From positions 1 through 24,159 of IMG/VR virus record IMGVR_UViG_3300022200_003336: DNA of 24,159 bases. One strand, given 5' to 3'. Positions 7,914-16,443 of this stretch are shown here, in pieces (the first letter of the stretch is position 1; each line of letters opens with the position of its first letter). The notes beneath the pieces are model-generated. The model did not search any database and was not told the origin of the DNA. It worked only from the letters and a program-made list of their open reading frames with translations. A program made the translations under genes and the position numbers. Origin of the DNA: a virus.

Positions 7914-8542
7914 TGAAAGGGATAATTTTAACACACCTGCAAAAGATGGAATTTGTATGCGGGCTGAAGCAATTTAAGGAGTATTCAAAAGATGATGGCA
8001 TCCAATTACTGAACTGCCTTAATAAGCTTTTTACTAGCTATGGCTGGATAACTGAGGAGCGAGTCAATTACATCCTTCACGCTGGGATGCGTGGGCAGTA
8101 CGGGGATTTCTACCACGTAAACGAAAAGACCGTGAGCGTATGGATCAATCAATACTACAATCACCACCAAAGTCAAATCGTGCAGGAGGTTCAGGCAAAG
8201 AATACCCAACACCGGGAGCCAACCGAGGAAGAGATTGCGCAATGGATCGAAATCGGCAAGCAGATCTTCCGAGATAATTACCAACACGCAAAGGAAAGCG
8301 GGTTCTGCCGGGATCTATCCGAATGGGGAGGGAACTGGTTTAACAAATTTCAGGAAAAGGGAATCTTAAAGCCTTGGTTGTATCAGGTAGACGAAATCGA
8401 AAAGGATGTCCGTAGGGAATTAAGATTAACTACCCGGTACATAGATGAAGTCACGGTAGGAGCAAAGTCAAAGAATAAAATTTGGAAACTATTTATTTTG
8501 GAATCAATTAAGGAAAACAAAAACCTCGACAAATTAATATGA
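7910..8542 (+). CDS. replication-region protein of unknown function (210 aa)
   Basis: The protein is mainly helical, with a central Trp/Tyr-rich segment (YGDFYHVNEKTVSVWINQYY, about 64-83), an acidic segment (REPTEEEIAQWIEIGKQIF), and a basic C-terminal third. It resembles uncharacterised proteins that follow the DUF6291-like gene in Bacteroidota phages; no catalytic motif is visible. Pairing with the preceding gene by ATGA overlap suggests a joint replication role, such as loader or accessory. The start may be ATG 7910 or the ATG three bases later. Confidence 0.6.
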   Translation: MMKGIILTHLQKMEFVCGLKQFKEYSKDDGIQLLNCLNKLFTSYGWITEERVNYILHAGMRGQYGDFYHVNEKTVSVWINQYYNHHQSQIVQEVQAKNTQHREPTEEEIAQWIEIGKQIFRDNYQHAKESGFCRDLSEWGGNWFNKFQEKGILKPWLYQVDEIEKDVRRELRLTTRYIDEVTVGAKSKNKIWKLFILESIKENKNLDKLI

Positions 8543-8688
8543 AAAAACAAGATCTTTTTAGCGCATCCTCCACTTTGCTTGCCATCTTTGGCTTGATGCA
8601 GGTAGACATCTCAAACCTATTTTTATTCTTGGTGCTGGTGGCTTTGTACACGATCGCAATGGACTTCGTATATAAGGCTTGCAAATGA
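8539..8688 (+). CDS. small membrane protein (49 aa)
   Basis: ATG 8539 overlaps the previous stop (ATGA), and its own stop overlaps the RusA gene start in the same way. The product starts MKKQDLFSASSTLLAIFGLM and has one or two hydrophobic segments (about 10-41). Its STLLAIF segment matches the holin-like protein at 543-743, with 19 of 22 identical bases. It may be a paralogue or share a membrane-insertion signal. Function unknown. Confidence 0.65.
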   Translation: MKKQDLFSASSTLLAIFGLMQVDISNLFLFLVLVALYTIAMDFVYKACK

Positions 8689-11105: not shown

Positions 11106-11291
11106 ATGTCAAACTTTCAACTAAATTTCAACTCAGCCAAAAAGGTAGTTACCATTTCACTTGTGGAAGAGGATGCCATCTTTGATCTAGCACTCCTATT
11201 CAAAAAATTACTTGACGATGCAGGGATCGAAAACACGATTAAAGAGACCTTGATTGAAGAGCCAGTAACCGAGACAGAAAATGGAAATTAA
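11106..11291 (+). CDS. small acidic protein of unknown function (61 aa)
   Basis: The product begins MSNFQLNFNSAKKVVTISLV and has a helical middle (DLALLFKKLLDDAGIEN) with an acidic end (EEPVTETENGN). No family is recognised. It follows the HNH gene by six bases and overlaps the ParB-like gene by 11 bases, so it is part of the same unit. Confidence 0.6.
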   Translation: MSNFQLNFNSAKKVVTISLVEEDAIFDLALLFKKLLDDAGIENTIKETLIEEPVTETENGN

Positions 11292-11859
11292 AACCGTAAA
11301 ATTATCTGAGGTCAAAACCAATCCTAATAACCCTCGGATTATCAAGGACGATAAATTTAGCAAGCTGGTAAAGTCTATTCAGGAGTTCCCTAAGATGCTG
11401 GAGATACGGCCGATAGTGGTGAACGCTGACATGATCGTGCTAGGTGGTAACATGAGGCTAAAAGCTTGCAAAGAAGCCGGGCTTAAAGAGGTGCCAATAA
11501 TCTTTGCCGATGATCTCACAGAAGATGAGCAAAGGCAGTTTATCATCAAAGATAACGTAGGCTTTGGTGAATGGGATTGGGATATGCTAGCAAACGAATG
11601 GGAGCCTGAGGAGCTTGAAACTTGGGGCCTTACAGTTCCTAATTGGGGTGAAGCTCCTGATTATTCTATTTTAGATGGGGAAGATGTAAGCGATCAAATG
11701 GATGAGATGAGCAACGGAGTTAAAAAAGCAATTCAAATTGAATTTGAGCCTGAGCATTATGAAGAAGCATTTGAGCTTGTAAAGTTTTGGAGAGAGCAAG
11801 GAGCATACGTTGGGGCTATGATAGTTGAATACTTAAAAGCAGAAAAACATAAATTGTAA
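11281..11859 (+). CDS. ParB N-terminal domain protein
   Basis: The 192-residue protein has the ParB/Srx-type domain: VKLSEVKTNPNNPRI (6-20), PIVVNADMIVLGGNMRLKAC (44-63, including the GGNxR-type motif), EVPIIFADDLTEDEQ and then FGEWDWDML. The rest (about 147-192) is an acidic helical tail. Phage members of this family have been described as DNA-binding proteins or nucleases and often stand next to DNA-modifying enzymes. Here it directly precedes the modification cassette by a one-base overlap. Base use becomes more AT-rich toward its 3' end (from about 11640). Confidence 0.85.
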   Translation: MEIKTVKLSEVKTNPNNPRIIKDDKFSKLVKSIQEFPKMLEIRPIVVNADMIVLGGNMRLKACKEAGLKEVPIIFADDLTEDEQRQFIIKDNVGFGEWDWDMLANEWEPEELETWGLTVPNWGEAPDYSILDGEDVSDQMDEMSNGVKKAIQIEFEPEHYEEAFELVKFWREQGAYVGAMIVEYLKAEKHKL

Positions 11860-12470
11860 TGTGTTCTATAATTGCAGTTTCCGGTAGCTGGGACGAAGAG
11901 ATTGTTAAACAGATAATAAAAAACTCAAGAATAAGAGGGCTTCATAGTTTTGGATATTCATTTGTTAAAAAAAATCAAATCTATAATTTAAAATTTATTG
12001 ACTATAAAAAATTTATACAATCACTGATTGAAAAAAAACCCAAAAAGTTTATTGCACATTTTCGCTATTCAACTAGTGGTGATTGGAAAGTTATTGAAAA
12101 TAATCAGCCAATTTTTTTAAATGATTTTTGTCTTGCCTTCAATGGAGTTATAGACATGAGTTCAAAAACTGAAATGGAAAATAAATTTGATATTAAAATG
12201 GAGACTGAAAACGATGGTGAGATTGCAATTATAAAATACAAACAAGGCAAGGATTCATTTTTAAATTTTATCAACGAAAATAAACGGACTTTTGCTGGGG
12301 TTTTTCTAAATAAAGAAAATCAAATAACTGCAATCAAAAATAATCTTAGGCCTTTGTCTATTTCAAAAGATAAACATGCTACGTATTTAGCAAGCACTTC
12401 AGATATTTTGTCAAGAAGTGGATTAAAAAGCTACGAGAAATTGAAACCTAATAAATTTTATGAAATTTAG
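11859..12470 (+). CDS. class II glutamine amidotransferase domain protein
   Basis: The 203-residue product starts MCSI, so Cys2 becomes the N-terminal nucleophile after Met removal, as in class II (Ntn) amidotransferases. Other matching parts are HFRYSTSGD (67-75), FLNDFCLAFNGVID (86-99) and ENDGE (117-121), corresponding to the glutamine-binding segments of PurF/GlmS. It ends after the glutaminase domain: no synthetase, phosphoribosyltransferase or isomerase domain follows. It would release ammonia from glutamine or hydrolyse a glutamyl amide. In this cassette it could supply nitrogen to, or trim, a modified base. The gene is very AT-rich. Confidence 0.85.
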   Translation: MCSIIAVSGSWDEEIVKQIIKNSRIRGLHSFGYSFVKKNQIYNLKFIDYKKFIQSLIEKKPKKFIAHFRYSTSGDWKVIENNQPIFLNDFCLAFNGVIDMSSKTEMENKFDIKMETENDGEIAIIKYKQGKDSFLNFINENKRTFAGVFLNKENQITAIKNNLRPLSISKDKHATYLASTSDILSRSGLKSYEKLKPNKFYEI

Positions 12471-12864
12471 GCCAGCCTTAAAATCGGATGAATTATTTAT
12501 TAAACTAGTTTATAAAGACTGTAAAAATGAGATTGGAAGTTTTAATCTTTACAACTGCTGGGACGATTATTTAAATCAAGAAAGCCCATATAAATTTTAC
12601 ATTCTTGAAAACATAGGCATGATAAGGTTTGGTTTCTCAAAAAGAATAAATGCCTTTGTGGTTAAGGATTTTGGTATTGTTTCTGAAAAACAGAGATGCG
12701 GGTTTGGTGAATTGTTCTTTAAAAATTTACCTAGACCAGTTTACCTGACTTGTAATACTGACAACGAAAAGGGCAATTCATTTTACAAAAAAATGGGTAT
12801 GAAATTCATTGGCACTAAACTTTCAAAAAATAAAAAGAAAAAAATGAATATATGGGTCATGTAA
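12460..12864 (+). CDS. GNAT-family N-acetyltransferase
   Basis: The 134-residue protein has the GNAT fold order: an N-terminal strand-helix (MKFRPALKSDELFIKLVY), a central strand pair, the acetyl-CoA loop region VSEKQRCGFGELFF (74-87, Q-R-x-G-x-G), and the C-terminal NTDNEKGNSFYKKMGMKF segment (99-116, typical motif B). It would acetylate an amine. In the cassette the likely substrate is an amino group on a modified base or its precursor. It overlaps the amidotransferase gene by 11 bases and the next gene by 13, so the three are translated together. Confidence 0.85.
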   Translation: MKFRPALKSDELFIKLVYKDCKNEIGSFNLYNCWDDYLNQESPYKFYILENIGMIRFGFSKRINAFVVKDFGIVSEKQRCGFGELFFKNLPRPVYLTCNTDNEKGNSFYKKMGMKFIGTKLSKNKKKKMNIWVM

Positions 12865-13682
12865 GCTATACGGATTACCATAATCATTCAATGCAAGCCA
12901 AAGATGTTGATCCTTCTGTGATTTGTTTGAAGTATTTGGCTGACAGGTTTGAATTGAATTTATCCCAAAGGTATTGGATTTCTTTTTTATACGGAACTAA
13001 TTATTGTGCCACAACCACATTTTTAATGTATAATGAATTTCCTGATTTTGAATTAGTTGATTTGAAACGAATGCAAAATTGGTGGGATAGAAACAAAGAA
13101 AAATTAATATTCCAAACAGATCGCCTAAGGGTAAAAACAGGTAATGGTTTTATCCCTGCATTCGTTAGTTATAAAAATTTAGTAAAATCTTCTCAAGAAA
13201 AATATTTCAATGATTCAAAGGATTGGAAAGACTGCTACTCAAAAATAACTTCTATTAAAAATTTCGGCAGATTTAGCACCTTCAATTATCTTGATGTGTT
13301 AAACCAAATAACCTCAACCATCCATTCGCCTACATATTTGAATATGCTTGAGGCTGAAAGTTGTAGGAATGGAATTTGTTTTGCAATAGGAAAAGAAGAT
13401 TGGATTGACCAAAAATTGACAAAAGAAAAAGCAGTTCATTTACATAATGTTTTTTTGAATTTGTTAAAAACTCACGAAGGAAATATTTATCAAATTGAAA
13501 CCACCTTGTGTGCATATAAAAAATACAGACTTGGTAAAAGATATGTTGGTTACTATATTGAACGCATGAGGAAAGAAATAGATACTATGGAGAAGCGATT
13601 CCCTGATGGGGTAGCCTGGGAAACATTATGGCAATTCAGAGAAGAGACATTTGAAAAAAAATATTTAAAAGAATTTAGTTAA
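12852..13682 (+). CDS. probable amino acid:DNA transferase (alpha-glutamyl/putrescinyl thymine pyrophosphorylase-like)
   Basis: The 276-residue protein resembles, from memory, the phage transferases that displace the pyrophosphate of activated 5-hydroxymethyl-dU with an amino compound. Recognised features are KNFGRFSTFNYLDVL (136-150), AESCRNGICFAIGKEDW (168-184), ETTLCAYKKYRLGKRYVGYY (216-235) and a final WETLWQFREE (256-265). The fold is expected to be related to HhH DNA glycosylases. Context is strong: kinase and TET/JBP oxygenase genes follow directly. Substrate (amino acid, polyamine or ammonia) cannot be read from sequence. Confidence 0.8.
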   Translation: MGHVSYTDYHNHSMQAKDVDPSVICLKYLADRFELNLSQRYWISFLYGTNYCATTTFLMYNEFPDFELVDLKRMQNWWDRNKEKLIFQTDRLRVKTGNGFIPAFVSYKNLVKSSQEKYFNDSKDWKDCYSKITSIKNFGRFSTFNYLDVLNQITSTIHSPTYLNMLEAESCRNGICFAIGKEDWIDQKLTKEKAVHLHNVFLNLLKTHEGNIYQIETTLCAYKKYRLGKRYVGYYIERMRKEIDTMEKRFPDGVAWETLWQFREETFEKKYLKEFS

Positions 13683-14161
13683 TGACAATTTTGTTAATTG
13701 GATATTGTGGAAGTGGGAAAACTTGGGTAATGAAAAACCTAATAAAACATCACGATTTAAATTTAAAAGCTAAAACGAAATTAATTCATTTTAGAACTAA
13801 TAAAAAAATATGCGTTCTTGGCAATTATGATGGAAGCGTTTTTGAAGGAGGAGACAAATTATCAATGGCTGTTAGTTTAGATTTTCAAAACTTTAAAAAG
13901 ATAAAAGATAAGGAAAATTTTATAGTGATTTGTGAAGGAGATAGATTTATGAATCAAAATTTTATAAAAACATTTAATCCTTTTATAATTAAGATTCAAG
14001 ATAATGGCGAAATGGGTAGAAAAGCAAGAGGATCAAATCAAACCCAAAGACATCTTACGTCAATTCAAACTAGAGTAAACAATATTAAAGAAAATAGGAT
14101 AGTTAAAAATAGCAATGAAGCTTTATCACTAATAAATCAAATAATAAATGAAACGAATTGA
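13682..14161 (+). CDS. P-loop kinase, probable 5-hydroxymethyl-dU DNA kinase
   Basis: The 159-residue protein has a Walker A loop GYCGSGKT (7-14), the segment GNYDGSVFEGGDKLSMAV (47-64), an acidic EGDRFM (85-90) in the place of Walker B, and a basic lid-like RKARGSNQTQRH (113-124). The YDG-x-x-FxGGDKLSM and EGDR motifs match what I recall of phage 5-hydroxymethyluracil DNA kinases, which phosphorylate the hydroxymethyl group in DNA. It overlaps the transferase by one base and the oxygenase by 14 bases. A general nucleotide kinase is the alternative but would not explain these motifs. Confidence 0.83.
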   Translation: MTILLIGYCGSGKTWVMKNLIKHHDLNLKAKTKLIHFRTNKKICVLGNYDGSVFEGGDKLSMAVSLDFQNFKKIKDKENFIVICEGDRFMNQNFIKTFNPFIIKIQDNGEMGRKARGSNQTQRHLTSIQTRVNNIKENRIVKNSNEALSLINQIINETN

Positions 14162-14942
14162 TCTTGTTAAAATAGACCATGATCGGAAGATCGGTGAGGT
14201 TTGCGAATACATTGAACCAAATGTTATTGAAGATTGTGTTTTTTATTCAGAGGGTGAGCCGATTGGATTTTACTTAACCAAAATGCCTGAAAAAATGTGC
14301 AAGTTAGCAGATTTGGCAAACGCAGAATTAAGAAGTAAAAATGTGCCAAAGTCAAATATGAATAGAAGTGATGCCGTAAAGAAATTTATGGAAGGAGGAA
14401 TGTCAGAAATGAAAAAAGGAGTTTCTCAGTATTCAACAATTATTGGCTCAACTCCTCCAAGACCTCACATGAGAAGGCCATACCCTTCTATATCTTCAGT
14501 TCATGGAGTAAAGACAGCCCAAACTTTTATAAAAGCTATGCTTTTGCTTGCAAGGGAAAGTGAAGAGTTAATTAAACAAATACTTCCAGAACAATATGAA
14601 AGGCAAGTAAAGGTTTTTTCTGATGTTCCTGAAAAATGGAGATTCGCAAATTTATTTACTAGCTCTATTTCAAACTACAATATTCCTGCTCCTTTTCATA
14701 GAGACACTGGAAACATAGTTGGGGCTGTAAATGTCATTATTTGCAAAAAGCAAAATTCAAAAGGAGGTGATCTCCACATTCCTGATTACAATGCGACAAT
14801 AGGACAAAGAGATAATTCAATTTTAGTTTACCCGGCTTGGAGGAACGTACACGGGGTTACCCCGATTGTGCCAACTCACGAAGGAGGGTACCGGAACAGT
14901 CTAGTTTTTTACCCGTTGAAAGCATTTAAAGGACTTGAATAA
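14148..14942 (+). CDS. TET/JBP-type 2-oxoglutarate/Fe(II) dioxygenase
   Basis: The 264-residue enzyme shows the double-stranded beta-helix iron site: His184 and Asp186 in FHRDTGN, His235 in NVHGVTPI, and the 2-oxoglutarate-binding Arg249 in GGYRNSLVFYPL. GGDLHIPDYN (206-215) and HGVTPI are typical of phage TET/JBP proteins, which hydroxylate the methyl group of thymine or 5-methylcytosine in DNA. The N-terminal part (VSQYSTIIG, PPRPHMRRPYPSISSVH) also fits phage members. It ends the cassette, 18 bases before the small terminase gene. Base composition turns GC-richer in its last 115 bases. Confidence 0.9.
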   Translation: MKRIDLVKIDHDRKIGEVCEYIEPNVIEDCVFYSEGEPIGFYLTKMPEKMCKLADLANAELRSKNVPKSNMNRSDAVKKFMEGGMSEMKKGVSQYSTIIGSTPPRPHMRRPYPSISSVHGVKTAQTFIKAMLLLARESEELIKQILPEQYERQVKVFSDVPEKWRFANLFTSSISNYNIPAPFHRDTGNIVGAVNVIICKKQNSKGGDLHIPDYNATIGQRDNSILVYPAWRNVHGVTPIVPTHEGGYRNSLVFYPLKAFKGLE

Positions 14943-14960
14943 TTATCAAAATTCAACACT

Positions 14961-15296
14961 ATGAAAAAGCCTGAAGTATCAGTAATCGAGAAAGCCATTG
15001 TGAAGTCATTTGGGAACCTTTCTACGGCCGCAAGGTCTTTGCAGGTAGATAGAGCCACCCTTTACAAATGGATCGAGCAGGAGGGCCTAGAACAGGCCGT
15101 AATCGAAGGCAGGAATACGAGGCTAGATTTTGTTGAAAGCAAACTTGATCAGAAGATAGATAGCGGTGATACCACTGCCATTATTTTCTTTCTCAAGACT
15201 CAAGGTAAAAGCCGAGGATACATCGAACGTCAAGAGGTAACCGGGGCCGATGGCAAAAAACTATTCGAGGTGACCATTGTAGATGGAACTGATTAA
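14961..15296 (+). CDS. terS: terminase small subunit (HTH type)
   Basis: The 111-residue protein has an N-terminal HTH (SVIEKAIVKSFGNLSTAARS and LQVDRATLYKWIEQEGLEQA, about 7-46), and a helical oligomerisation region ending GKSRGYIERQEVTGADGKK. This Fis-like HTH and RGY-x-ER-x-E ending are typical of small terminases that recognise the packaging site. It overlaps the large subunit gene by 14 bases. Confidence 0.83.
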   Translation: MKKPEVSVIEKAIVKSFGNLSTAARSLQVDRATLYKWIEQEGLEQAVIEGRNTRLDFVESKLDQKIDSGDTTAIIFFLKTQGKSRGYIERQEVTGADGKKLFEVTIVDGTD

Positions 15297-16443
15297 GCTA
15301 AAAACCAACAAAGTATTTAAGCAGCTTGAAACCTCCACGGCTAAAATTGTAGTTCAGCAGGGAGGCACGAGATCAGGGAAGACCTTCAATATTTTACTTT
15401 GGATTATTTTTTCGTACTGCGAAAGAAATGAGGGTAAGATCATAACCATTTGCCGCAAGTCATTCCCAGCCTTAAGGGGTACTGTGATGCGTGACTTTTT
15501 TCAGATCATTAAAGACCACGAGATCTACACCGAAGAAGCGCACTCCAAGACTGCCAACGAATACACAATAAATAAAAATACAATCGAGTTTATTTCTTTG
15601 GATATGCCTCAGAAGATCAGGGGCCGCAAGAGGGATCTACTATTTGCAAACGAGGCCAATGAGTTAACGCAGGAGGATTGGACTCAGCTACTTTTTAGAA
15701 CCAATGAAAAGGTGATTTTAGACTACAACCCATCTGAAGAATTCCATTGGATTTATGATCAGGTGCTACCTAGAAAGGATGTCGACTTCTTTCAAACCAC
15801 TTACAAGGATAACCCATTTTTAGGCGATGTAATCAAAGAAGAAATCGAAAGGCTTAGAGGGGTAGATGAAAACTACTGGAGGGTGTACGGCCTCGGAGAA
15901 AGGGGTACTGCTAGATCCTTGGTATATACTTTCACCACCTGCAAAGAAATCCCAACGGAAGCGAAGCTTGTAAGCTACGGCCTTGACTTTGGTTACTCAT
16001 CAGATCCGACATCCTTGGTTCGCACGTATCTTTTAGAGGACAATATGTACGTGGACGAATTGCTTTACCGCACCGGGATGACCAACCAAGACATCGCAAA
16101 TGAGATGAAGGTGTTGGGCCTTGACAGGAGTAACGAGATCTATGCGGATTCAGCTGAGCCAAAAAGTATAGAGGAGATTTACCGGATGGGCTGGAATGTA
16201 AAGCCAACAATTAAGGGATCAATCAACATAGGGATAGACATCATCCGAAGATATAAGCTTCACGCAACCGAAAGCAGTTTTAACCTGATCAAGGAGCTGC
16301 GTAACTACAAATACATCGAGGACAAAAACGGGCACATGACTAACAAGCCGGTTGACAATTTTAACCACGCATTGGATGCCCTGCGCTATTCGGTAGTAAA
16401 CAAGATTTCGCAAAGCCATTTGGGTCGCTACTCCTTCAGATAA
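15283..16443 (+). CDS. terL: terminase large subunit
   Basis: The 386-residue protein has a packaging ATPase domain with Walker A GGTRSGKT (27-34), Walker B-like LLFANEAN (119-126), and the coupling segment LDYNPSEEFHWIYDQVL. The C-terminal nuclease of RNase H fold shows Asp235 in LDFGYSSDP, Asp289 in ADSAEP, and His362/Asp365 in NHALDALRYS. It pumps DNA into the prohead and cuts the concatemer. No portal or capsid gene follows it in this window, which is unusual. Length is near the low end for the family. Confidence 0.95.
   Translation: MELIKLKTNKVFKQLETSTAKIVVQQGGTRSGKTFNILLWIIFSYCERNEGKIITICRKSFPALRGTVMRDFFQIIKDHEIYTEEAHSKTANEYTINKNTIEFISLDMPQKIRGRKRDLLFANEANELTQEDWTQLLFRTNEKVILDYNPSEEFHWIYDQVLPRKDVDFFQTTYKDNPFLGDVIKEEIERLRGVDENYWRVYGLGERGTARSLVYTFTTCKEIPTEAKLVSYGLDFGYSSDPTSLVRTYLLEDNMYVDELLYRTGMTNQDIANEMKVLGLDRSNEIYADSAEPKSIEEIYRMGWNVKPTIKGSINIGIDIIRRYKLHATESSFNLIKELRNYKYIEDKNGHMTNKPVDNFNHALDALRYSVVNKISQSHLGRYSFR

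What the first reader, a model, noticed from the sequence alone, without database searches (positions are those of the whole stretch)
11859..14942. Five-gene DNA hypermodification cassette built on a TET/JBP oxygenase
Directly seen: five overlapping genes with the motifs of a class II amidotransferase (Cys2, HFRYSTSGD), a GNAT acetyltransferase (QRCGFG), a transferase-like protein (ETTLCAYKKYRLGKRY), a P-loop kinase (GYCGSGKT, GGDKLSM, EGDR) and a TET/JBP dioxygenase (HRD, NVHG, YRNS). Established: phage 5-hydroxymethyl-dU kinases and amino acid:DNA transferases work in sequence on DNA in thymine-hypermodifying phages, and computational genomics has linked TET/JBP, such kinases, GNATs and amidotransferases. 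Inferred: this set makes a new or rarely studied thymine derivative in phage DNA, probably to resist host nucleases, before packaging by the adjacent terminase.
Basis: partly seen in the sequence, partly recalled or inferred. Interest (0 to 1): 0.92.

Follow-up and report, generated by a model that had tools for sequence, protein, structure and literature searches.

The report
Phage thymine-decorating cassette using TET
This phage carries a swappable five-gene kit that probably oxidises thymine in its own DNA, phosphorylates it, replaces the phosphate with an amine taken from glutamine and caps the amine, a rewired version of known phage DNA-camouflage pathways whose chemistry has not yet been tested.

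Summary
The five genes are real, at the stated coordinates and correctly identified. The transferase belongs to Pfam ADDT, and its predicted fold best matches the PaMx11 5-phosphomethyl-dU glycinyltransferase (Z 19.4, next 9.5). The oxygenase passes Pfam Tet_JBP; the kinase has a nucleoside-kinase fold; the amidotransferase keeps PurF-type catalytic residues; the acetyltransferase family's cultured-phage relatives are mainly PaMx11-type gp48. The cassette fills one exchangeable slot, ParB-[module]-TET-TerS-TerL. Among 157 distinct islands, every acetyltransferase island has the amidotransferase (43/43), every amidotransferase island has ADDT (69/69), 86/88 ADDT islands have a P-loop kinase, and every kinase island has TET (98/98). 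Glycosyltransferase and methyltransferase modules occupy the same slot and exclude the kinase. No thymidylate synthase was found in the window or 69 related records, and cytosine methylases are uncommon, so thymine is the likeliest substrate. Best reading: PaMx11's pathway with two steps replaced. TET hydroxylates thymine in place, and glutamine-derived ammonia replaces the glycine-plus-flavin route, giving aminomethyl-dU that is then acylated. TET+kinase+ADDT is already known (Rhodococcus phage Tonitrus); the amidotransferase-linked version is a new variant. The chemistry is unproven.

The parts
11281..11859 (+). ParB-like N-terminal domain protein, left border of the exchangeable slot
   Evidence: PF02195 33.5 bits, cut-off 26.3; ParB adjacent in 146 of 157 islands
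11859..12470 (+). Class II glutamine amidotransferase, stand-alone PurF-like glutaminase domain (GAT)
   Evidence: TIGR01134 purF E 2.4e-10, below its cut-off; 11 of 12 family members match GATase_6; aligns to Bacillus PurF glutaminase domain; C2, R69, N95-G96, D119 invariant
12460..12864 (+). GNAT acetyltransferase
   Evidence: 7 of 9 family members match Acetyltransf_1, best E 2e-10; family profile matches PaMx11 gp48, 43.6 bits; an island relative hits PaMx11/Ab18-type acetyltransferases
12852..13682 (+). ADDT-family DNA transferase
   Evidence: PF18724 E 2.6e-12, above cut-off; model pLDDT 96 matches PaMx11 5-PmdU glycinyltransferase Z 19.4
13682..14161 (+). P-loop kinase, proposed hydroxymethyl-base DNA kinase
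   Evidence: Model pLDDT 95, nucleoside/NMP kinase fold, UCK2 Z 11.7; family profile matches the Tonitrus PF18751 kinase
14148..14942 (+). TET/JBP 2-oxoglutarate/Fe(II) dioxygenase; H184, D186, H235 and R249 are the expected metal and 2-oxoglutarate ligands
   Evidence: PF12851 39.7 bits, cut-off 34.9; motif positions
11871..14133 (.). Replaceable module: DNA replaced by another module in L002 and L003; 26-31% G+C genes against 37-45% in the flanking genes
   Evidence: blastn borders 11870 and 14134 against L002 and L003; 11854 and 13653 against L004, which shares the kinase
14961..15296 (+). Probable small terminase, right border of the island
   Evidence: phrog_309 terminase small subunit E 2.8e-6 and position
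15283..16443 (+). Large terminase
   Evidence: PF04466 61.6 bits, above cut-off; a terminase gene is close by in 145 of 157 islands

Best explanation
A phage DNA hypermodification island. Step 1 (inferred): the TET/JBP enzyme hydroxylates the methyl group of a 5-methylpyrimidine in phage DNA, most likely thymine, giving 5-hydroxymethyl-dU; no modified nucleotide has to be made first. Step 2 (inferred): the P-loop kinase phosphorylates the hydroxymethyl group. Step 3 (enzyme class shown, reaction inferred): the ADDT enzyme displaces the phosphate; in this ADDT clade the nucleophile is ammonia released from glutamine by the adjacent PurF-like amidotransferase, leaving 5-aminomethyl-dU. Step 4 (inferred): the GNAT acylates the amine, most simply to 5-acetamidomethyl-dU. 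This is PaMx11's pathway with two parts replaced: TET for the thymidylate-synthase-type hydroxymethylase, and amidotransferase for glycine plus flavoenzyme. My step estimates: DNA hypermodification 0.9; thymine rather than cytosine 0.8; kinase then ADDT 0.85; ammonia as nucleophile 0.55; acylation of the resulting amine 0.65. The confidence below is for the whole chain.
For: ADDT fold and family shared with PaMx11 5-PmdU glycinyltransferase. TET passes PF12851. Kinase fold and link to PF18751. Strict nesting GNAT in GAT in ADDT in kinase in TET over 157 islands, GAT then ADDT in 69 of 69, natural ADDT-kinase fusions. GAT tied to one ADDT clade. GAT keeps the glutaminase catalytic residues and aligns to PurF, whose ammonia displaces pyrophosphate (PurF chemistry is established knowledge). 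GNAT family related to PaMx11 gp48, which stands next to ADDT and a FAD enzyme. No thymidylate-synthase family gene in the window or 69 relatives, few cytosine methylases, and a complementary pattern in cultured phages.
Against: No chemistry measured. The window is a fragment, so a cytosine methylase or flavoenzyme could lie outside it. L004 and L010, which carry ADDT cassettes, do encode cytosine methylases, and phage Melnitz pairs one with TET and a kinase relative. Characterised ADDT enzymes are named for amino acid donors, not ammonia. One GAT-ADDT-TET island, L194, shows no kinase beside it. The window kinase and GAT score below curated cut-offs on their own.
Confidence: 0.45

Rival explanations
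1. Same TET-kinase-ADDT order on thymine, but ADDT attaches an amino acid, as characterised relatives do. The amidotransferase then amidates or trims the attached amino acid, and the GNAT acylates its amino group.
For: The closest solved relative is a glycinyltransferase. The family is named amino acid:DNA transferase. Other islands carry PLP or FAD enzymes that could tailor an attached amino acid.
Against: The GAT is a bare glutaminase domain with no ATP-dependent synthetase partner in the island. GAT is bound to one ADDT clade, 69/69, rather than scattered as a late tailoring gene would be, and that clade differs at positions shared by the other ADDTs.
Confidence: 0.27
2. The substrate is 5-methylcytosine, made by a phage or host methylase, and the cassette builds an aminomethyl- or amino-acid-cytosine.
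For: L004, L010 and a few other records encode cytosine-5 methylases. Melnitz has methylase, TET and kinase side by side. Phage TETs with 5-methylcytosine activity were reported by Burke et al. 2021 (from memory; not held).
Against: No methylase in the window nor at the place where L004 has one; 0 of 20 kinase-type records and 3 of 40 GAT/ADDT records have one; not more frequent with the kinase than without, 5/65 against 3/24. Tonitrus and LilMcDreamy, whole genomes with TET and ADDT, have none. The best structural match acts on a deoxyuridine derivative.
Confidence: 0.17
3. GAT and GNAT are passengers unrelated to the DNA base, and only TET, kinase and ADDT act in the pathway.
For: Many islands have TET-kinase-ADDT or TET-kinase without them. 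On the ADDT tree the GNAT label needs at least 8 changes.
Against: 43/43 and 69/69 co-occurrence, fixed GAT-then-ADDT order, overlapping reading frames, close to a single origin of GAT on the ADDT tree, and a PaMx11-type acetyltransferase relative.
Confidence: 0.06

Closest known systems
Pseudomonas phage PaMx11 / Abidjanvirus thymidine hypermodification cluster (gp46 5-PmdU glycinyltransferase, gp47 FAD enzyme, gp48 acetyltransferase, gp49-gp50 kinase parts, gp51 thymidylate synthase family)
   Same: Transferase family and fold, related GNAT, P-loop kinase step, compact adjacent genes
   Different: Window has TET and no thymidylate synthase family gene, an amidotransferase and no FAD enzyme, a small kinase without the HMUDK helical domain
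Rhodococcus phage Tonitrus five-gene thymine hypermodification system (PMC11955845)
   Same: ParB, TET, ADDT and P-loop kinase of the same broad family in one island near the genome's packaging genes; no synthase, no cytosine methylase
   Different: No amidotransferase or GNAT match; gene order differs; ADDT and TET distant from the window's
Mycobacteriophage LilMcDreamy TET-ADDT island
   Same: ParB, TET, ADDT, terminases in a row
   Different: No kinase next door; an Asp/Arg-hydroxylase-like gene instead of GAT and GNAT
TET-associated glycosyltransferase (PF20691) phage islands; base J synthesis by JBP plus glucosyltransferase
   Same: TET product as a platform; same slot beside ParB and terminase
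   Different: A sugar transferase replaces the kinase-ADDT route; never together with the kinase in 25 islands
PurF, glutamine phosphoribosylpyrophosphate amidotransferase
   Same: Same glutaminase domain and catalytic residues; proposed common logic that ammonia displaces a phosphate leaving group
   Different: Here the acceptor would be a DNA base on a separate ADDT protein; the phosphoribosyltransferase domain is absent

Membership tests
ADDT, amino acid:DNA transferase (PF18724) | Curated Pfam score | tested here: met
   47.4 bits against 26.2
ADDT, amino acid:DNA transferase (PF18724) | Fold of the solved member, PaMx11 gp46 | tested here: met
   Z 19.4 over 251 residues, next family 9.5
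ADDT, amino acid:DNA transferase (PF18724) | Transfers an amino acid to a phosphorylated hydroxymethyl base | not testable with these tools
   Needs an assay; the donor may be ammonia in this clade
TET/JBP dioxygenase (PF12851) | Curated Pfam score | tested here: met
   39.7 bits against 34.9
TET/JBP dioxygenase (PF12851) | HxD...H metal triad and 2-oxoglutarate arginine | tested here: met
   H184, D186, H235, R249 in the sequence; spaced pattern found in 91 of 97 kinase-island TETs
TET/JBP dioxygenase (PF12851) | Oxidises a 5-methylpyrimidine in DNA | not testable with these tools
   Needs an assay
P-loop Nucleotide Kinase3 (PF18751) | Curated Pfam score | tested here: not met
   Window protein 11.4 bits against 27. 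Relative L176 passes with 27.5, and the family profile matches the Tonitrus PF18751 kinase. Related to, not filed as a member
Known 5-hmdU DNA kinases (HMUDK_HMUD1 PF18748, HMUDK_hel PF18723, HMUD2 PF18747) | Match to these families | tested here: not met
   No match up to E 1; it may still work like them
Class II glutamine amidotransferase | N-terminal catalytic Cys, Arg, Asn-Gly, Asp | tested here: met
   Invariant in 12 relatives; Met-Cys start in 89 of 91 distinct sequences
Class II glutamine amidotransferase | Curated profile score | tested here: inconclusive
   Window protein: TIGR01134 40.4 bits against 350, a full-length PurF model; no Pfam match at E 0.01, but 11 of 12 family members match GATase_6
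GNAT acetyltransferase | Match to GNAT families | tested here: met
   Family level: 7 of 9 relatives match Acetyltransf_1; the window protein alone is below cut-off
PaMx11-type thymidine hypermodification pathway | Thymidylate-synthase-family hydroxymethylase and FAD oxidoreductase present | tested here: not met
   No PF00303 in the 24 kb window; no FAD enzyme among the island's genes. It works like this pathway but is not filed as a member

The most novel reading that the evidence does not exclude
The amidotransferase and a specialised ADDT clade form a two-protein, PurF-like enzyme that aminates DNA directly: glutamine-derived ammonia displaces phosphate from a phosphomethyl base in the double helix. 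It would turn the methyl of ordinary thymine into an aminomethyl and then an acylaminomethyl group, without a modified nucleotide pool, an amino acid donor or a flavin enzyme, encoded in an exchangeable slot beside the packaging genes.
Probability: 0.42. Interest if true: 0.75.

Novelty: new variant of a known kind. Interest (0 to 1): 0.62.

Why it matters
If right, it gives a complete, testable route by which a phage rebuilds plain thymine inside finished DNA. It suggests that one TET product, a hydroxymethyl-pyrimidine, is a common platform onto which phages plug interchangeable tailoring modules (sugar, methyl, phosphate, amine, acylamine). The nested gene content makes the order of steps testable module by module. 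A DNA-aminating enzyme pair would also be a useful tool for labelling DNA.

Tried and rejected
A 'DNA methylase' next to the TET in Prochlorococcus phage MED4-184 turned out to be a ParB-like protein, so it is no evidence for cytosine. PHROG label 'queuine tRNA-ribosyltransferase' for the oxygenase is rejected: Pfam and motifs say TET/JBP. PHROG label 'terminase small subunit' for the kinase (phrog_800) is rejected: PaMx11 gp49, annotated the same way, scores as a P-loop NTPase with weak 5-hmdU kinase similarity.

Eleven GAT-ADDT-TET islands first seemed to lack a kinase; ten carry a second P-loop family (KINB) in the same place, one (L194) has none. L167 first seemed to lack GAT because of my ORF filter; it has one.

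Glutamine amidotransferase genes of cultured Pseudomonas phages (Lyrsu01, JB8) lie in other contexts. The megaphage GNAT relative has no cassette around it. A scan of bacterial genomes for the kinase found no relative. PDB sequence searches for ADDT and TET gave nothing useful.

Key papers (Lee 2018/2022, Iyer 2013, Burke 2021, Wen 2024) are not in the library or were not found, so statements about them rest on memory or on citing papers.
Full report
WHAT IS THERE. The window is a 24,159-base virus record from IMG/VR. The five ORFs sit at the stated coordinates and overlap by 1-14 bases. Left of them is a ParB-like gene (11281-11859), right of them the probable small and the large terminase genes. 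Two proteins pass curated Pfam cut-offs: ADDT (PF18724, 47.4 bits) and Tet_JBP (PF12851, 39.7 bits). The amidotransferase (GAT) matches PurF and phage glutamine amidotransferase profiles; 11 of 12 family members match GATase_6, and the family aligns to the glutaminase domain of Bacillus PurF. The catalytic Cys2, Arg69, Asn95-Gly96 and Asp119 are invariant in 12 relatives. The acetyltransferase is weak alone, but 7 of 9 relatives match Acetyltransf_1. The kinase reaches no family cut-off, yet its model (pLDDT 95) has a nucleoside/NMP-kinase fold (UCK2, Z 11.7).

THE TRANSFERASE. Its model (pLDDT 96) matches best the crystal structure of PaMx11 gp46, the 5-phosphomethyl-dU glycinyltransferase, at Z 19.4 over 251 residues; the next matches are DNA glycosylases at Z 9.5 or less. 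PaMx11 gp46 is in the same Pfam family. That the acceptor is a phosphorylated hydroxymethyl base is therefore the natural reading, and it fits the kinase gene next door.

A SWAPPABLE SLOT. The TET family has at least 597 relatives in IMG/VR. In most of the 80 nearest, the order is ParB, module, TET, small terminase, large terminase, and the module differs: TET-associated glycosyltransferase family (PF20691), FkbM methyltransferase, another apparent glycosyltransferase, glycosyltransferase-like plus sulfotransferase, ADDT plus kinase, or GAT-GNAT-ADDT-kinase. L002, L003 and L004 have TETs 93-94% identical to the window's but different modules. The DNA alignments break sharply at 11870 and 14134 against L002 and L003, and the module genes have 26-31% G+C against 37-45% in the flanking genes.

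NESTED CONTENT. Loci were gathered by scans anchored on TET, ADDT, kinase, GAT and GNAT separately. After removing duplicates there were 157 complete islands. GNAT always came with GAT (43/43), GAT with ADDT (69/69), ADDT with a P-loop kinase (86/88; one exception is phage RPN242, whose HMUD2 kinase lies just upstream; the other is L194), and kinase with TET (98/98). In all 69 GAT islands the next gene other than GNAT is ADDT. A PLP-enzyme module occurs with ADDT (12/12) and never with GAT; the PF20691-type and FkbM-type modules never occur with the kinase (0 of 50). Fisher tests give p 2e-6 for GNAT with GAT among ADDT islands and far smaller values for the exclusions; related islands are not independent, so these are descriptive. 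The nesting matches the order oxidise, phosphorylate, substitute, supply amine, acylate. ADDT-kinase fusions occur in nature. On a quick ADDT tree the PALP-type ADDTs form one group, and GAT presence needs only two changes, one of which is a gene my ORF filter had missed; GNAT needs eight, so it looks like an optional last step. The tree has long branches and no outgroup.

WHICH BASE. The characterised thymidine-hypermodifying phages M6, ViI and phi W-14 are thought to put 5-hydroxymethyl-dU into DNA from the nucleotide pool (PMC6449724), and a 5hmdU DNA kinase then phosphorylates it (PMC7653180). Here no thymidylate-synthase-family gene was found in the window, in 29 other records or in 40 more. 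A cytosine-5 methylase was found in 0 of 20 kinase-type records, 3 of 40 GAT/ADDT records and 5 of 30 mixed records; by my tally that is 5 of 65 with the kinase and 3 of 24 without, no difference. Many records are fragments, so each absence is weak alone. Cultured phages give a cleaner pattern: RPN242 (ADDT, HMUD2 kinase) has the synthase and no TET; Tonitrus and LilMcDreamy have TET and ADDT, neither synthase nor methylase; Melnitz has TET, a kinase relative and a HhaI-like methylase, no synthase. So thymine is the likelier substrate for the window, and a cytosine version of the pathway probably exists elsewhere.

WHERE THE AMINE COMES FROM. PaMx11 encodes, in order, gp46 ADDT, gp47 FAD oxidoreductase, gp48 acetyltransferase, gp49 P-loop protein, gp50 5-hmdU-kinase helical domain and gp51 thymidylate synthase family. 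The island GNATs are related to gp48: the family profile scores it 43.6 bits, and an island GNAT (L302) searched against 50,697 phage records hit 12 Pseudomonas records, PaMx11 and Ab18 among them, and two records of one uncultured megaphage; Ab18 has the same gene arrangement. The window's own GNAT, a more divergent member, found only the megaphage at E up to 1. In PaMx11 the amine is thought to come from glycine through the flavin enzyme (title of Wen et al. 2024, cited in PMC11946847; details from memory). The window's island has no FAD gene but has an amidotransferase tied to its own ADDT clade. In PurF the same domain releases ammonia that displaces pyrophosphate from an activated carbon (established knowledge). 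I therefore propose ammonia displacing phosphate from phosphomethyl-dU, giving aminomethyl-dU, then acylation. Residues that set the GAT-linked ADDTs apart (Q88, F141, A168, C171 among others) are candidates for the change of nucleophile. This step is inference.

WHAT IS KNOWN AND WHAT IS NEW. TET plus ADDT plus kinase next to ParB has been described for phage Tonitrus as a thymine hypermodification system (PMC11955845), and TET-linked hypermodification was predicted by Iyer et al. 2013 (from memory; not held; whether it mentions the amidotransferase I could not check). The kinase and the amidotransferase have only distant relatives in the cultured-phage collection. What I found no description of: the recurrent amidotransferase-ADDT pairing, its strict nesting, the link of the GNAT to PaMx11 gp48, and the exact exchange borders. 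I file it as a new variant of a known kind.

LIMITS. No chemistry has been measured; the window is a fragment; the search for related loci returns the nearest 80 per scan, so frequencies are not those of nature; island labels come from my own iterated profiles. The protective role and the timing relative to packaging are untested.

Noticed in passing
L095, L096, L098, L100, L123, L141 (kinase beside TET): Nine islands carry only the kinase with TET and no ADDT. A phosphomethyl base could itself be an end product there.
   Followed up: no
L311 3652-6534 (Methylophilales phage Melnitz): A cultured phage with a HhaI-like cytosine methylase, TET, an unknown 427-aa protein and a relative of this kinase in a row: a likely cytosine version of the pathway.
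   Followed up: partly
L057 947-2247: Glycosyltransferase-like gene followed by a sulfotransferase (PF03567) in the slot before TET; a sulfated sugar on a base is possible.
   Followed up: no
L093 5906-6913 and 11 other islands: A PLP-dependent (PALP-like) enzyme accompanies ADDT and kinase and never the amidotransferase.
   Followed up: partly
L012 5319-6014, L082 16431-17132 and others: An FkbM-type methyltransferase fills the same slot before TET in 25 islands and could cap the hydroxymethyl group.
   Followed up: partly
L004 314-1114 against window 8542-8679: L004 has a cytosine-5 methylase gene where the otherwise syntenic window has none.
   Followed up: partly
PaMx11 gp49 (L319 14218-14787); phrog_800, phrog_6059, phrog_498; NC_020847 CPAG_00033: Misleading labels: 'terminase small subunit' on a P-loop protein next to the 5-hmdU-kinase helical domain, 'queuine tRNA-ribosyltransferase' on TET/JBP, 'DNA methyltransferase/methylase' on ParB-only proteins.
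   Followed up: yes
L084 2656-3759 (mycobacteriophage LilMcDreamy): An aspartyl/asparaginyl-hydroxylase-like gene (PF05118) follows TET and ADDT, before the terminase genes.
   Followed up: no
L169-L171, L173-L175, L182, L186, L229, L266 (gene between ADDT and TET): A second P-loop family (GNYGVGKS type) replaces the window-type kinase at the same position.
   Followed up: partly
L147, L155, L158, L159, L161: Natural fusions of ADDT with the kinase.
   Followed up: yes
window 11281-11859 and 146 of 157 islands: A ParB-like gene almost always borders the island next to the terminase genes; its role in modification or packaging is unknown.
   Followed up: no
L149 7200-8486: One ORF joins a GP88 domain (PF17338) to the kinase.
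   Followed up: no
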